Below, one piece after another: positions 2,924 through 8,716 of a stretch of DNA of 9,445 nt. Position 1 is the stretch's first letter. Each line of letters begins with the position of its first letter. Made by a program: the position numbers and the translations under genes. This stretch comes from Anaerolineales bacterium (lineage in GTDB: Bacteria; Chloroflexota; Anaerolineae; 4572-78; NAK82). The stretch lies in assembly GCA_024643945.1 (NCBI GenBank), contig JAHELX010000065.1:7122-16566 (forward strand), given 5' to 3'. The notes under the pieces are model-generated. The model saw only the letters and a list, made by a program, of their open reading frames with translations, made no database searches and was not told the origin of the DNA.

Positions 2924-5227
2924 GTGGTGATTGCGCTGAGGGGGGATTCTGCCATAAACAACCAGCTACCTTCCATAAATCTTGTTGTCCAAATTGGCCC
3001 TGATCCAGGCCAGGTGTTCGCTGTTCAGAAACACACCCAGACGATTGGTCGCAGCTTGGCCAACGACATCCCTATCCCTGAACCGTCGTTGTCCCGGCAG
3101 CACGCCAGAATCAGGGCAACGCCATATGGGTTTGTGATTGAAGACCTCGGCTCGACCAACGGCACTTTTGTCAACGGACAGCGGGTGACCGGCCCCACGC
3201 CGTTGCGCCCCGGTGATACTCTCCAGTTGGGTGATGTCGTCACGCTCAACGTTCAGCCCGGCCAACCCAGCCCGGGCGACCAGGTAACAGTGATCCCGGA
3301 CTCGACCCTTGTGTCTGGCAGGCCATCACCCGGCACCCCGGACTCAACCTTTGTCCCGGCTACCCCCTCTCCACCACCTGCCTCAGTCCCGCCGTTCCCC
3401 CCGGCACCCATCTACTATCCATCGGCCCGGGACAATGGTCCCTGGATATGGATTGGGGTCATCGTGGCAACTGTCTTGATTGGGGGGGCAATCATCGGAG
3501 GCCTTTACTACTACTTAACTGTGCTAGACATATCTCACCCAAAGGGCATCTCGCAGACCCAGAGTCCCCCCGAAATTTCTCAGACGCCTACAACCGTTCA
3601 GGCACAACCGGTCCCTGTAGAACCCCCCTCCCTACCTACCCCCACGGTGACCCCGCTGCCAGTCCCTGAGGCGGTCACGATTGTGGTGGGCGGAGTGCCG
3701 GCCCTCACGGCGGAGGAGGGTGAACCGCCAGAGAACCTCACGTGGATTGACGCTGGCTGCAATCGCCAGGTCGAGATCAGCACTGACGAGCCGTTGATCC
3801 TGAGATGGAGTTGGACAGTAGCCGAAGACAGCGAAACCGGCTATCTGGCCCAATGGCTGGAAGTTGCCTATTACGACGTCCGCCTGGGTGGTGTCCCTAT
3901 TACAGAGATGGGCTCGCTTAACTACTACCGCACCGAGGGTTATCATGCCAAAGACCAGCGTGGCCCTGCCCTGGAATGGTGGGTTAACGTGGGTATCTTG
4001 CCAGCCGGCGGGCATCGCGTCACGATTGAGTCATACACCACCCGCGCCGTTTCTGATGGCTTCGACGTCGACCCGGCCGATGGCCAGTTGGACGTCTATG
4101 GTCCAGGGTTGGTTGATGCCGGCTTTTGCAACATCAGCGTGGTCGCGGTGGAGGCTGCCGCCCCAACGCCGGAAGTTTCCTCCACCTCGACGCCAAACCC
4201 TACCTCGACACCAAAACCAGTCGCTACTCAGATACCAGTAGTCGCTGCGCCACTGGGTATTTTCCAGGATTTCGAAAACGAGAGCATCTGGAAGCGCGGA
4301 GACCAACCTTATGGCGAATTCAGCCGTTCCACGGTCCAAGTGCATGGCGGTCAATATGCCGGACAATTGACCTACAATTTCCCCTCCCCAGACAGCGACT
4401 ACGTTGTTTTCCTGCAAAGCCGCCCCCTGGCGGGGCAGCCCAACGCCATCTTGGCTTGGGTCTATGGCGACGGCTCCGGCCACTTCCTTAACATCTGGAT
4501 CAAAGACGCGGCTGGACAGACCTGGCAAATGACCTTTGGCCAAGTGAAGCACACCGGTTGGCAGCAGATGGCCGCCATTCTGGATCCCGGCCAGTCCTGG
4601 CCTGGCGGTCACATCAGCGGCCCAGATAACGGAGCCATTGATTACCCCATCAGCTTCCAGGCTCTGGTGCTGGACGACATTCCTGATACCTACAGCGGCA
4701 GCGGAACCATTTACATTGACGATCTCAACAGTCAGGAAGGGACTGCCCCGCCAACGTCCACACCCATACCACCCATTGGCGCGCCTACCCCGACCACAGG
4801 CGGCCAGCCCGAATCGGTGGGTAGTGACGTCTACGTTTTGAGGATAGGCGGCCAACATAGGTATGAGGAACCTTGGGGAGCACCCAAAGACGGTAACCCC
4901 TGTAGGGCTTGGGAAACCGGTAACTGGGATGATGAAAACCCCAATTTTAGGGGCTTTAATGTTGAGTTGCTGCTGACAAACAACTCAACCGCCAAAGTGC
5001 AAGATGATTGGGGCGAGAACGTGAGGTTTTTCACGGCCGAAGGGCAGGAAGTAACGGCCTGTTACTACGGCTACGCTGGGGCTGGTCCGCCGCCCGGTGG
5101 GACGACCTCTTTGACCTTTTTCAGCGTTGTCCCCAAAGGCGATTATGTGCAGATCATGCAACTTAACCTCAACGGTCAATTTATCCAGATTTGCCTGGAT
5201 GGAAGAGGCGGGTGGTCACCCTGCTGA
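2924..5227 (+). CDS. FHA-domain, single-pass membrane protein with extracellular domains
   Basis: A 767-residue protein. An N-terminal FHA domain (about residues 18-112) shows GRS (42-44), SRQH (57-60) and LGSTNGTFVNG (75-85), the phospho-threonine-binding loops of the family. A Pro-rich linker follows, then one membrane helix (about 173-200, GPWIWIGVIVATVLIGG). With FHA in the cytoplasm, the rest should be outside. Outside come a Thr/Pro linker (208-248), an unrecognised domain (about 250-410), a second Thr/Pro linker (413-440), a domain of about 160 residues (445-602) with the look of a CIA30/FlaA/carbohydrate-binding jelly roll (WVYGDGSGH, GTIYIDDL), a third linker (607-630) and a C-terminal domain (631-767) with four cysteines. 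The start is uncertain: GTG at 2924 or 2927 lacks a ribosome site, while AGGGGGG lies inside the frame at 2939-2945. The preceding gap (2716-2923) holds only a weak TACTAT -10 candidate at 2868. The binding partner is unknown. Confidence 0.85.
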   Translation: MVIALRGDSAINNQLPSINLVVQIGPDPGQVFAVQKHTQTIGRSLANDIPIPEPSLSRQHARIRATPYGFVIEDLGSTNGTFVNGQRVTGPTPLRPGDTLQLGDVVTLNVQPGQPSPGDQVTVIPDSTLVSGRPSPGTPDSTFVPATPSPPPASVPPFPPAPIYYPSARDNGPWIWIGVIVATVLIGGAIIGGLYYYLTVLDISHPKGISQTQSPPEISQTPTTVQAQPVPVEPPSLPTPTVTPLPVPEAVTIVVGGVPALTAEEGEPPENLTWIDAGCNRQVEISTDEPLILRWSWTVAEDSETGYLAQWLEVAYYDVRLGGVPITEMGSLNYYRTEGYHAKDQRGPALEWWVNVGILPAGGHRVTIESYTTRAVSDGFDVDPADGQLDVYGPGLVDAGFCNISVVAVEAAAPTPEVSSTSTPNPTSTPKPVATQIPVVAAPLGIFQDFENESIWKRGDQPYGEFSRSTVQVHGGQYAGQLTYNFPSPDSDYVVFLQSRPLAGQPNAILAWVYGDGSGHFLNIWIKDAAGQTWQMTFGQVKHTGWQQMAAILDPGQSWPGGHISGPDNGAIDYPISFQALVLDDIPDTYSGSGTIYIDDLNSQEGTAPPTSTPIPPIGAPTPTTGGQPESVGSDVYVLRIGGQHRYEEPWGAPKDGNPCRAWETGNWDDENPNFRGFNVELLLTNNSTAKVQDDWGENVRFFTAEGQEVTACYYGYAGAGPPPGGTTSLTFFSVVPKGDYVQIMQLNLNGQFIQICLDGRGGWSPC

Positions 5228-5351: not shown

Positions 5352-5397
5352 ATTCTAACATGTGTCTAGTGTGAATCTAACACGCCCGCATTACAAT
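5352..5397 (+). promoter_or_regulatory. Possible promoter and operator of the Cys-rich gene
   Basis: A -10-like TACAAT (5392-5397) lies 30 bases before the ATG at 5428; no good -35 element stands at 16-18 bases from it. Upstream is a direct repeat, ATTCTAACA (5352-5360) and AATCTAACA (5374-5382), spaced 22 bases apart, about two helical turns, which would let two regulator molecules bind the same DNA face and compensate for the missing -35. Both parts are inferred from pattern only. Confidence 0.4.
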
Positions 5398-5427
5398 GTA
5401 GACAACGCTGAGACGAAGAGCAAGATC

Positions 5428-5643
5428 ATGCAAAAGCAATTTATGCAACACGCCGCCAATACCCGGCTGAAATGTGCCAATTGCCAGATCACTATTTACT
5501 GGATACCTACCATCGTGGATGGCGAGGCCTACTGTTGTTCCGGCTGCGCCGATGGGGGGCCATGCACGTGCGATTACAGCCATCTCCCTGAAACGGGGCA
5601 AAGACAGGCTATTGTGTTGCATCACTCGCAAAGTATCACCTAG
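5428..5643 (+). CDS. Small seven-cysteine metallothionein-like protein
   Basis: A 71-residue protein with seven cysteines in its middle: a CANC pair (C16, C19), YCCSGC (C36, C37, C40) and PCTC (C46, C48). The arrangement CxxC, about 16 residues, then YCC-x2-C-A-x-GGPCxC recalls the prokaryotic metallothionein family and also small TRASH-like or P-type-ATPase N-terminal metal sites; it should bind zinc, copper or a similar thiophilic metal. The tail is polar and includes two adjacent His (HH). I prefer the ATG at 5428 because the cysteine core begins 15 residues later and the sequence before it (an open frame back to a GTG at 5362) has no family look and would overlap the repeats described above. 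Its ribosome site is weak (GAAGAG). It stands 152 bases ahead of dnaK in the same direction, with a TATAAT between them. Confidence 0.75.
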   Translation: MQKQFMQHAANTRLKCANCQITIYWIPTIVDGEAYCCSGCADGGPCTCDYSHLPETGQRQAIVLHHSQSIT

Positions 5644-7766: not shown

Positions 7767-7861
7767 AGGTGCCCGGCACTTCATCGACAGAAATGCACCA
7801 CGTCCGGGCCGCTGTCAGACGCCAGATTATGGCTTGAAGGCCGCAAAAGTGCCGGGCACCT
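7767..7861. repeat. REP-like pair of inverted palindromes (BIME-like)
   Basis: AGGTGCCCGGCACTT (7767-7781) and AAGTGCCGGGCACCT (7847-7861) are perfect 15-base inverted copies. Each arm is itself a hairpin, GTGCC-C-GGCAC plus flanking pairs. The 65 bases between contain a further GACAG (7786-7790)/CTGTC (7812-7816) stem. Two palindromes in opposite orientation around a short insert is the form of REP doublets that are moved by REP-associated tyrosine transposases; the transposase gene is not here. It lies in the 283-base gap after dnaK and may also stabilise the 3' end of that mRNA. Confidence 0.7.
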
Positions 7862-7927: not shown

Positions 7928-7960
7928 AAGGGGGCGGCGGCCGGCTAACGCCGCCCCTTT
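7928..7960 (+). terminator. GC-rich terminator-like hairpin before the Sec-glutaredoxin gene
   Basis: GGGGCGGCG (7931-7939) pairs perfectly with CGCCGCCCC (7949-7957), extended outward by a G-T wobble and two A-T pairs, with a 9-base loop. The stem ends in TTT, a short U-tract. It lies 218 bases after dnaK and 32 bases before the glutaredoxin ATG, so it probably ends the dnaK transcript; if it did so completely the next gene would need a promoter within 32 bases, which I cannot see, so partial read-through is likely. Confidence 0.55.
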
Positions 7961-7992: not shown

Positions 7993-8493
7993 ATGAGCGT
8001 AATTGTTTATACCACCCCGACCTGACCCTACTGCCGCATGGTGAAAGAGTTTCTTTCACAACGAAGCATTTCGTTCGTCGAAAAGGACGTGTCGATGGAC
8101 CGGGCAGCCGCCGTGGACATGGTGCGACGCACCGGCCAGCAGGGCGTACCTGTCACCGAGATTGACGGTGAATTCGTCATCGGTTTTGACCGGCCCCGGC
8201 TGGAACGCCTGCTGCACCAGGCGTCACGCCCCACACTGGGCGTGAGTGTGGCTGACGCGTCTCGACACGCACCAGCCGTGGGACAGGGAGCTTACGTCGG
8301 CAAAGTCCGCGCTGGCTCCGCGGCCCAACGAGCCGGCCTGAAAAAGGGGGACGTCATCACCGAAATCGGCAGCCGTCCTATCCCTGACGCCGCCACGCTG
8401 GTGAACCTTTCCCGCCGTATCGCGCCAGGACAACAAGTACGCGTGCGTTTCGTGCGAGATGGCCGGACACAGGAGACGGCTCTCGTTTTGTAG
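7993..8493 (+). CDS. Selenocysteine-containing glutaredoxin fused to a PDZ domain (UGA=Sec at 8023)
   Basis: Read through an in-frame UGA, this gene gives 166 residues. The N-terminal half (1-76) is a glutaredoxin of the YruB/NrdH-like type: MSVIVYTTPT, then UGA as residue 11, then PYC (C14), the cis-proline segment GQQGVPV (P53) and GFDRPRLERLL (64-74). The UGA replaces the nucleophilic Cys of TPTCPYC, and a SECIS-type hairpin follows, so residue 11 is best read as selenocysteine. A short linker joins a PDZ domain (about 82-166) with LGVSV, GAYVGKVRAGSAAQRAGLKKGDVI (split across residues 99-122) and TLVNLSRR, as in HtrA-type proteases but with no protease domain. No signal peptide or membrane helix is present, so it should be cytoplasmic. 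The ATG at 7993 has AGGT six bases upstream. The alternative, a start at ATG 8038, would leave a headless glutaredoxin. Other possibilities are a recent nonsense mutation or a read error. Confidence 0.88.
8023..8059 (+). promoter_or_regulatory. Bacterial SECIS element with Sec UGA codon
   Basis: The UGA is 8023-8025. GTGAAAGA (8041-8048) pairs perfectly with TCTTTCAC (8052-8059) around the loop GTT (8049-8051). The loop G stands 24 bases after the UGA, and the apical loop begins with G-U, the bases that SelB recognises in well-studied bacterial SECIS elements. The hairpin is inside the coding frame, as is usual for bacteria, encoding V17-K18-E19-F20-L21-S22. Sec insertion would need selA, selB, selC and selD elsewhere in the genome. 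Confidence 0.8.
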
Positions 8494-8613: not shown

Positions 8614-8716
8614 TGCACCTTTCAATGGGTCTGTCCCAAATTTCAGGTGCTAGACCCTAAGGGTTTCAGAAAACCCTTAGGGTCTGCCAAGAATTTGGGA
8701 TGCACCCCCTTTCAAT
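8614..8716. repeat. Nested inverted repeat flanked by short direct repeats
   Basis: AGACCCTAAGGGTTT (8652-8666) and AAACCCTTAGGGTCT (8671-8685) form a perfect 15-bp stem with a CAGA loop. Outside it a second pair of arms, TCCCAAATTTC (8634-8644) and GAATTTGGGA (8691-8700), matches apart from one missing A. The whole is flanked by TGCACC-TTTCAAT (8614-8626) and TGCACC-CCC-TTTCAAT (8701-8716). No U-run follows, so it is not a plain terminator. It looks like a small dispersed palindromic element, or an RNA structure in the leader of the metallopeptidase gene. Confidence 0.65.

What the first reader, a model, noticed from the sequence alone, without database searches (positions are those of the whole stretch)
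7993..8059. In-frame UGA at a glutaredoxin active site with a SECIS hairpin: a hidden selenoprotein
The frame ATG 7993 to TAG 8493 is broken only by one UGA, and that UGA sits precisely at the nucleophilic Cys of the glutaredoxin motif (T-P-T-U-P-Y-C). Starting 15 bases later is a perfect 8-bp stem with a GUU loop, the loop G being 24 bases from the UGA, within the roughly 16-37 base range described for bacterial SECIS elements. Glutaredoxin residues continue seamlessly on both sides of the UGA. A random stop mutation would not be expected to coincide both with the catalytic Cys and with such a hairpin. Standard annotation would start at ATG 8038 and lose the catalytic site.
Basis: partly seen in the sequence, partly recalled or inferred. 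Interest (0 to 1): 0.93.

Follow-up and report, generated by a model that had tools for sequence, protein, structure and literature searches.

The report
Hidden selenium glutaredoxin fused to PDZ
This bacterial gene has the stop codon UGA exactly where a disulfide-handling enzyme's catalytic cysteine belongs, followed by an RNA hairpin that 40 of 41 compared UGA-bearing genes keep in the same place (the last in a shifted form), so the cell likely reads the UGA as selenocysteine and makes a selenium enzyme that routine gene annotation would cut short.

Summary
ATG 7993 to TAG 8493 is a glutaredoxin + PDZ frame broken only by UGA 8023-8025 at the catalytic Cys position (TPT-U-PYC). An 8-bp hairpin with a GUU loop lies 23 nt downstream. 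Of 59 distinct aligned loci (window plus Chloroflexota genomes), 41 have UGA and 18 Cys at that codon. Stem pairing averages 7.7 of 8 in UGA loci (5.1 expected from synonymous recoding) and 4.5 in Cys loci (3.9 expected). All 41 UGA loops read GU(U/A/G). 27 cells show compensatory changes, reached by 0 of 500 shuffles. The source genome is not held. The closest held relative, G625 (81% identical protein, UGA kept, dnaK adjacent), has tRNA-Sec, SelA and SelD; its SelB is cut by an assembly gap. Two other window genes end in TGA, so the code is not reassigned. Sec glutaredoxins and NCBI's "Uxx-star" (seleno)proteins are known. The PDZ fusion is absent from the review passages I saw, and the window protein misses the NCBIfam cut-offs. 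Sec insertion is very likely; the PDZ-targeted reductase role is inferred.

The parts
7993..8493 (+). Grx-PDZ selenoprotein ORF (166 residues plus TAG), predicted Sec at residue 11
   Evidence: AlphaFold model of the read-through protein mean pLDDT 91.5, pTM 0.55
8023..8025 (+). in-frame UGA predicted to be decoded as selenocysteine; aligns with the catalytic Cys of TPTCPYC
   Evidence: UGA in 41 and Cys in 18 of 59 distinct aligned loci
8041..8059 (+). bacterial SECIS-type hairpin: 8-bp stem, GUU apical loop 8049-8051
   Evidence: fits the published bSECIS constraints quoted in PMC13188914
8032..8034 (+). TGC codon of Cys14, the predicted resolving Cys of the UxxC motif
   Evidence: Cys in 41 of 41 UGA loci; column invariant in alignment A2 of 40 proteins
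8230..8481 (+). HtrA/DegP-type PDZ domain (residues 80-163)
   Evidence: sequence and fold matches in the PDB include HtrA/DegP/DegQ PDZ domains
8038..8493 (+). truncated ORF that a standard gene caller would report (starts at Met16, loses the active site)
   Evidence: 15 database relatives start at this residue

Best explanation
The ORF at 7993-8493 likely encodes a selenocysteine-containing glutaredoxin fused to an HtrA-type PDZ domain, in which the UGA at 8023-8025 is predicted to be read as Sec under direction of the hairpin at 8041-8059. Shown by the calls: the frame, the UGA at the catalytic Cys codon, the conserved and covarying hairpin that is kept when UGA is present and mostly absent when Cys is present, and Sec machinery in the nearest held relative and in most UGA-bearing relatives. 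Inferred: SelB carrying Sec-tRNA(Sec) binds the hairpin and delivers Sec at the UGA. Sec11 would then attack disulfides (or other oxidised sulfur) as the nucleophile and Cys14 would resolve the selenenylsulfide. The PDZ domain would recruit client proteins by their C-termini, making a client-targeted redox-repair enzyme, probably cytosolic.
For: One UGA only, at the nucleophile codon, with coding on both sides; Tyr6, Thr10 and Cys14 around it are the same in 41 of 41 UGA loci. 41 of 59 distinct loci have UGA and 18 have Cys at this codon. Mean stem pairs 7.7 of 8 versus 5.1 expected in UGA loci, and 4.5 versus 3.9 in Cys loci; loop GUN in 41 of 41 UGA loci. Covariation: 96.3% of cells paired against 90.3% in shuffles; 27 cells changed on both sides against a shuffled mean of 8.4 (0 of 500 reach it); sliding the register lowers pairing to 69% or less. 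Between two close relatives (L094 UGA, L089 Cys), 13 of the 48 nt from the UGA/TGC codon onward differ and 11 of 158 in the rest of the Grx domain; 1 of 6 third positions in the stem is kept against 46 of 53 elsewhere. G625: tRNA-Sec with TCA anticodon, 67.5 bits, SelA 545.7 bits, SelD 371.9 bits, SelB N-terminus 86% identical to a relative's, ending at a 100-N gap. In the 40 genomes with UGA loci in the count: SelB over cut-off in 34 and a fragment in 3 more, tRNA-Sec in 35, SelD in 34. TGA is the stop of two other window genes.
Against: The window's own genome is not held, so its sel genes are unseen. No peptide or activity data exist. Folding energy alone is unremarkable. Two of the five covariation measures are weaker: pairs with a change on both sides (3) are reached by 65 of 500 shuffles and further pair types (8) by 11 of 500. 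Sec machinery does not separate the two forms: all 18 Cys-form genomes also have SelB over the cut-off. One UGA locus (L065) pairs only 4 of 8 in the fixed register, although it folds as a 7-bp stem with loop AGTT, G second. Three UGA genomes (G036, G021, G008) have no SelB found, although each has at least one other Sec marker. The tRNA-Sec model also rings over its cut-off in 5 of 14 control genomes, not all of which are Sec users as I recall. The gene is patchy: 1 of 25 genomes in G625's order has it at E up to 1e-25. The promoter/terminator scan gave no more than chance.
Confidence: 0.93

Rival explanations
1. A pseudogene or sequencing error: UGA is a nonsense mutation (or miscall) of a Cys codon.
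For: A single base separates TGA from TGC/TGT; 19 close database relatives have Cys at this site.
Against: The same codon is UGA in 40 other distinct loci, each from a different held genome, including G625, whose protein is 81% identical. The frame is otherwise intact and the stem-loop is conserved at synonymous sites.
Confidence: 0.03
2. The real protein starts at ATG 8038 (Met16) and is a PDZ protein with a dead, truncated glutaredoxin remnant; upstream codons and the hairpin are incidental.
For: Gene callers choose this start: 15 of 37 listed database relatives of at least 70% identity begin there.
Against: Residue 16 is Met in only 7 of 41 UGA loci (Gln 20, Thr 10, Arg 2, Ala 1, Lys 1), while Tyr6 and Thr10 before the UGA and Cys14 after it are the same in 41 of 41. 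The hairpin's stem and loop covary and are missing in most Cys homologues, which an internal start does not explain. No Shine-Dalgarno-like stretch was seen just upstream of 8038 (by eye).
Confidence: 0.03
3. UGA is a sense codon throughout this organism (altered genetic code), so no SECIS is needed.
For: None found beyond the open frame itself.
Against: Two of the seven window genes checked (response regulator 2250-2639 and FHA protein 2924-5227) end at TGA, and the six other than the glutaredoxin gene are open under the standard bacterial code. tRNA-Sec with TCA anticodon is found in relatives.
Confidence: 0.005

Closest known systems
Selenoprotein glutaredoxin (UxxC, PF00462), as in the Sargasso Sea set (PMC1088965) and listed above the 'predicted' families in PMC13188914 and PMC9312934
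   Same: Glutaredoxin fold, Sec at the N-terminal position of UxxC, bacterial SECIS downstream of the UGA.
   Different: The window protein carries a C-terminal HtrA-type PDZ domain; the passages seen in those papers describe none for this family.
NCBIfam NF041212 Uxx-star family glutaredoxin-like (seleno)protein, and TIGR02196 GlrX_YruB
   Same: Best-matching Grx-domain models; Chloroflexota Cys relatives P0097 and P0110, also with a PDZ domain, score 74.8 and 73.7 (cut-off 66) on NF041212 and carry that name.
   Different: The window protein scores below both cut-offs (53.6 of 66; 80.7 of 88.55), and both models (70 and 74 positions) cover the Grx domain only.
Trx7/PDZ domain-containing (seleno)protein NF041199
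   Same: A thiol-redox domain and a PDZ domain in one selenoprotein (named in PMC13188914 and, as 'PDZ domain-containing protein', in PMC9312934).
   Different: Thioredoxin_7 domain with CxxU, model length 390; the window matches only its PDZ part (27.7 bits, cut-off 300).
HUGP/GUXX-star fusion selenoprotein NF045501
   Same: A Grx-like UXX-star domain within a fusion selenoprotein.
   Different: Different fusion partner, Grx part at the C-terminus (model positions 166-230 of 236); 32.4 bits against a cut-off of 325.

Membership tests
Bacterial selenoprotein gene (UGA-Sec with bSECIS) | In-frame UGA aligned with a conserved redox Cys of homologues | tested here: met
Bacterial selenoprotein gene (UGA-Sec with bSECIS) | Hairpin with 3-9 nt loop, 4-16 bp upper stem, G in the first two loop positions, 16-37 nt from UGA, MFE at most -7.5 kcal/mol (criteria quoted in PMC13188914) | tested here: met
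   3-nt GUU loop, 8 bp, 23 nt; -8.5 kcal/mol with flanks, though the bare 19-nt hairpin is only -7.1. bSECISearch itself was not run
Bacterial selenoprotein gene (UGA-Sec with bSECIS) | Conserved, covarying hairpin in UGA homologues | tested here: met
Bacterial selenoprotein gene (UGA-Sec with bSECIS) | selA, selB, selC, selD in the same genome | tested here: inconclusive
   Own genome not held; met in the nearest held relative G625 except that selB is cut by an assembly gap
Bacterial selenoprotein gene (UGA-Sec with bSECIS) | Sec shown in the protein | not testable with these tools
   needs 75Se labelling or mass spectrometry
Glutaredoxin (PF00462) | Score over Pfam gathering cut-off | tested here: met
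   63.8 bits, cut-off 22.9, with U read as C
NF041212 Uxx-star (seleno)protein | Score over curated cut-off (66 bits) | tested here: not met
   53.6 bits; the more distant P0050, P0097 and P0110 do pass
TIGR02196 GlrX_YruB | Score over curated cut-off (88.55 bits) | tested here: not met
   80.7 bits; the close Cys relative P0002 scores 88.1
NF041199 Trx7/PDZ (seleno)protein | Score over cut-off (300 bits) including the Trx7 domain | tested here: not met
   27.7 bits, PDZ part only

The most novel reading that the evidence does not exclude
A phylum-wide, uncatalogued family of Chloroflexota selenoproteins in which a Sec glutaredoxin is tethered to an HtrA-type PDZ domain to make a client-targeted redox-repair enzyme. 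Its active site has switched repeatedly between Sec and Cys, gaining or losing its SECIS hairpin each time, and annotation has hidden the Sec members by starting them after the UGA.
Probability: 0.45. Interest if true: 0.62.

Novelty: new variant of a known kind. Interest (0 to 1): 0.5.

Why it matters
It adds a domain architecture (Sec glutaredoxin plus PDZ) to the bacterial selenoproteome and suggests that database entries starting at Met16 have lost their catalytic site. The family needs at least 11 Sec/Cys changes on the quick tree, 5 of them forced by well-supported branches. It includes a close Sec/Cys pair in which the codon and the hairpin changed together. That makes it a good system for asking how SECIS elements are gained and lost, and for testing what a PDZ domain does for a redox enzyme.

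Tried and rejected
Altered genetic code: rejected, because TGA ends two other window genes. Pseudogene: rejected, because the UGA recurs in 40 other loci. Operon with dnaK as a family rule: in a tblastn of the window's proteins against 14 loci, dnaK was found next to the gene only in G625's locus; some of the 14 loci are short and could miss it. In the window a GC-rich inverted repeat (7928-7960) lies between the two genes. Folding energy as proof: weak. Rfam search of the window: no match. Absence of SelB in G625 first looked like a contradiction. It was resolved by finding the SelB N-terminus running into a 100-N gap; G625's single contig is a scaffold with several 100-N joins in the stretches I looked at. 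A Sec-machinery versus UGA correlation is uninformative, because Cys-form genomes also have SelB. The whole-model Foldseek search returned HtrA/DegP-type chains in the 50 rows shown; the Grx half was identified by sequence. Promoter/terminator scan: no more than chance.

Literature. Search listings only. Passages seen: PMC13188914, PMC1088965, PMC12013277, PMC9312934, PMC1914089. No paper was read whole.

Full report
What is there. The window reads ATG at 7993 to TAG at 8493 with one interruption, TGA at 8023-8025. Read through, the 166-residue product is MSVIVYTTPT-U-PYCRMVKEF..., with a glutaredoxin domain (PF00462, residues 3-62, 63.8 bits) and an HtrA-type PDZ domain (PF13180, residues 80-163, 55.4 bits). 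The AlphaFold model built on 40 aligned sequences has mean pLDDT 91.5 but pTM 0.55, so the two domains are confident and their mutual arrangement is not. Residues 11 and 14 sit at the start of the first helix (H12-23), as expected for a glutaredoxin (general knowledge).

The hairpin. Stem 8041-8048 with 8052-8059 is 8 of 8 Watson-Crick, the loop is GTT, and 23 nt separate UGA and loop. This meets the constraints quoted for bacterial SECIS elements in PMC13188914 (passages seen): 3-9 nt loop, 4-16 bp stem, G in the first two loop positions, mostly followed by G or U, 16-37 nt spacing, and energy at most -7.5 kcal/mol (here -8.5 with flanks, -7.1 for the bare 19 nt). The energy of the wider 68-nt region is not unusual (z -1.5), so energy alone proves nothing.

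Relatives. The protein search found 644 relatives, of which 120 are listed. Among 37 listed relatives of at least 70% identity, 19 have Cys at the site, 15 start exactly at Met16 and 3 start later; among 83 of 40-70% identity, 80 have Cys, 1 has Leu (P0085) and 2 start at Met16 or later. The 15 are what a gene caller would make of a UGA gene, but their DNA was not seen. A sample of 400 genomes of the phylum of G001 (Chloroflexi by the record title of L001) gave a match at E up to 1e-12 in 95 of 400. Of the 41 matches listed with E of 1.7e-31 or better, 32 contain exactly one TGA, 8 contain no stop and 1 contains a TAG. The order of G143 gave 12 of 15 genomes. A class-level search of 396 genomes gave 30 at E up to 1e-40 and brought in G625, 81% identical, with one TGA. 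In G625's own order only G625 of 25 genomes matched at E up to 1e-25, so the gene is patchy there.

UGA against Cys. I aligned 59 distinct loci at the codon: 41 UGA (window included) and 18 Cys. Dropped: L007 and L008, whose alignment piece began after the site but which have TGA and the same hairpin, and L045, a duplicate of L001. The loci were the best up to 30 per search, not all matches. UGA loci keep 8 of 8 pairs in 32, 7 in 8 and 4 in 1; loops are GTT 34, GTA 4, GTG 3. Cys loci have a mean of 4.5 pairs (3.9 expected) and scattered loops. The one poor UGA locus, L065, folds as a 7-bp stem with loop AGTT, G second, 22 nt from the UGA. On the 41-row alignment, three pairs change on both sides (U-A to C-G in 14 rows; A-U to G-C or C-G in 11; A-U to G-C in 2). 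No shuffle of 500 reaches the observed share of paired cells, number of double-sided cells or covariation score, although relatedness can inflate that control; the number of pairs with double-sided change is reached by 65 of 500 and the number of further pair types by 11 of 500. Sliding the register drops pairing from 96% to between 40 and 69%. Residue 16, the start that gene callers choose, is Met in only 7 of 41 UGA loci, while Tyr6, Thr10 and Cys14 are the same in 41 of 41.

A natural experiment. L094 (UGA, genome G475) and L089 (Cys, G420) match at 30 of 30 nt just before the codon and at 147 of 158 nt in the Grx domain after the stem. Within the stem-loop only 13 of 19 nt and 1 of 6 third positions match. 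Thirteen of the 48 positions from the codon onward differ, against 0 to 7 per 50 nt in the other blocks from -400 to +449. L094 and L088, both UGA, keep 19 of 19 in the stem-loop with 141 of 158 identity downstream. In this pair the hairpin goes with the UGA. Whether by recombination or by decay is not settled; the clustering looks like a short replaced tract.

Repeated switching. A quick maximum-likelihood tree of 77 rows (41 UGA; 36 Cys, of which 18 loci and 18 database proteins; position 11 masked) needs at least 11 changes of state, 5 of them forced by starred branches (shuffled mean about 26). The window groups with L079 of G625 (support 86), inside a starred set of 20 rows of which 18 are Cys proteins. 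The Met16-starting relatives were not in the tree, so the Sec share of that set is probably underestimated.

Sec machinery. No genome is held for the window. G625 has dnaK (89.8% identical) next to the gene, as in the window. It has tRNA-Sec with anticodon TCA, SelA and SelD, itself with a TGA. Its first SelB search found only weak matches, the best 100 bits against a cut-off of 242. A relative's SelB then found a 42-residue N-terminus, 86% identical, that ends at a run of 100 N, so SelB appears to be present but unassembled. In the 40 UGA genomes of the count, SelB is over the cut-off in 34 and present as a fragment in 3 (G625, G529, and a short piece in G455), tRNA-Sec is found in 35, and SelD in 34. 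SelA was searched in only 7 of the 40 and found in 6. The three without SelB each have another marker: G036 tRNA-Sec and SelD, G021 and G008 SelA. Controls among 14 named genomes over the cut-off: SelB 2, tRNA-Sec 5, SelA 1, SelD 2. The tRNA-Sec model alone is therefore the least specific of the four; the best hits in these 35 genomes score 64 to 78 bits against a cut-off of 47. All 18 Cys-form genomes also have SelB over the cut-off, so machinery does not distinguish the forms.

Mechanism. Shown: frame, site, hairpin, covariation, machinery in relatives. Inferred: SelB-dependent Sec insertion; Sec11 as nucleophile with Cys14 resolving; PDZ-mediated recruitment of client C-termini; cytosolic location (no signal sequence is evident by eye). 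The electron donor is unknown. The NrdH-like and YruB-like resemblance would allow a thioredoxin-reductase route, which is untested.

Known and new. Sec glutaredoxins with UxxC are established (PMC1088965; PMC13188914; PMC9312934), a glutaredoxin-like TGA cluster was listed in 2007 (PMC1914089), and NCBI already names Cys relatives with this architecture "Uxx-star family glutaredoxin-like (seleno)protein" (P0097, P0110). In PMC13188914 and PMC9312934 the word PDZ occurs once each, for the Trx7/PDZ family with CxxU. A search for papers holding selenoprotein, glutaredoxin, PDZ and Chloroflexi found none; two searches listed only those two reviews and PMC1914089, which does not contain PDZ. The window protein misses the curated cut-offs of NF041212 and TIGR02196. 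I therefore file it as a bacterial Sec glutaredoxin of a PDZ-fused variant, not as a member of either curated family.

Noticed in passing
L089 (G420) against L094 (G475): Close genes, one UGA and one Cys; differences cluster in the 48 nt that hold the codon and hairpin, like a short replaced tract.
   Followed up: partly
L072 (G415): Cys (TGT) member that still forms 7 of 8 stem pairs but with a UUU loop: possibly a recent Sec-to-Cys change with a decaying SECIS.
   Followed up: no
P0085 (database protein): A Grx-PDZ relative with Leu where the others have Cys or Sec (TPTLPYC); its DNA was not seen.
   Followed up: no
G295:C3:255374-255886: A Grx-PDZ match with one in-frame TAG instead of TGA; position of the TAG not checked.
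   Followed up: no
window 8627-8707: Nested perfect and near-perfect inverted repeats (15-nt arms with 4-nt loop inside 16-nt 81% arms), like a small palindromic mobile element downstream of the gene.
   Followed up: no
window 7767-7861: 15-nt perfect inverted repeat (AGGTGCCCGGCACTT) with 65 nt between the arms, between dnaK and the glutaredoxin gene; another small palindromic element.
   Followed up: no
window 5362-5643: Small Cys-rich ORF (CANC...CCSGCADGGPCTC) with no Pfam or NCBIfam match at E up to 0.001, just upstream of dnaK.
   Followed up: partly
G625:C1:5104650-5105582 and other SelD matches: SelD matches in most of these Chloroflexota genomes contain one TGA, so SelD is probably itself a selenoprotein there.
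   Followed up: no
G625 (L097, L116, L129): The single 5.35 Mb contig has contigs joined by runs of 100 N, so absences in it mean little.
   Followed up: yes
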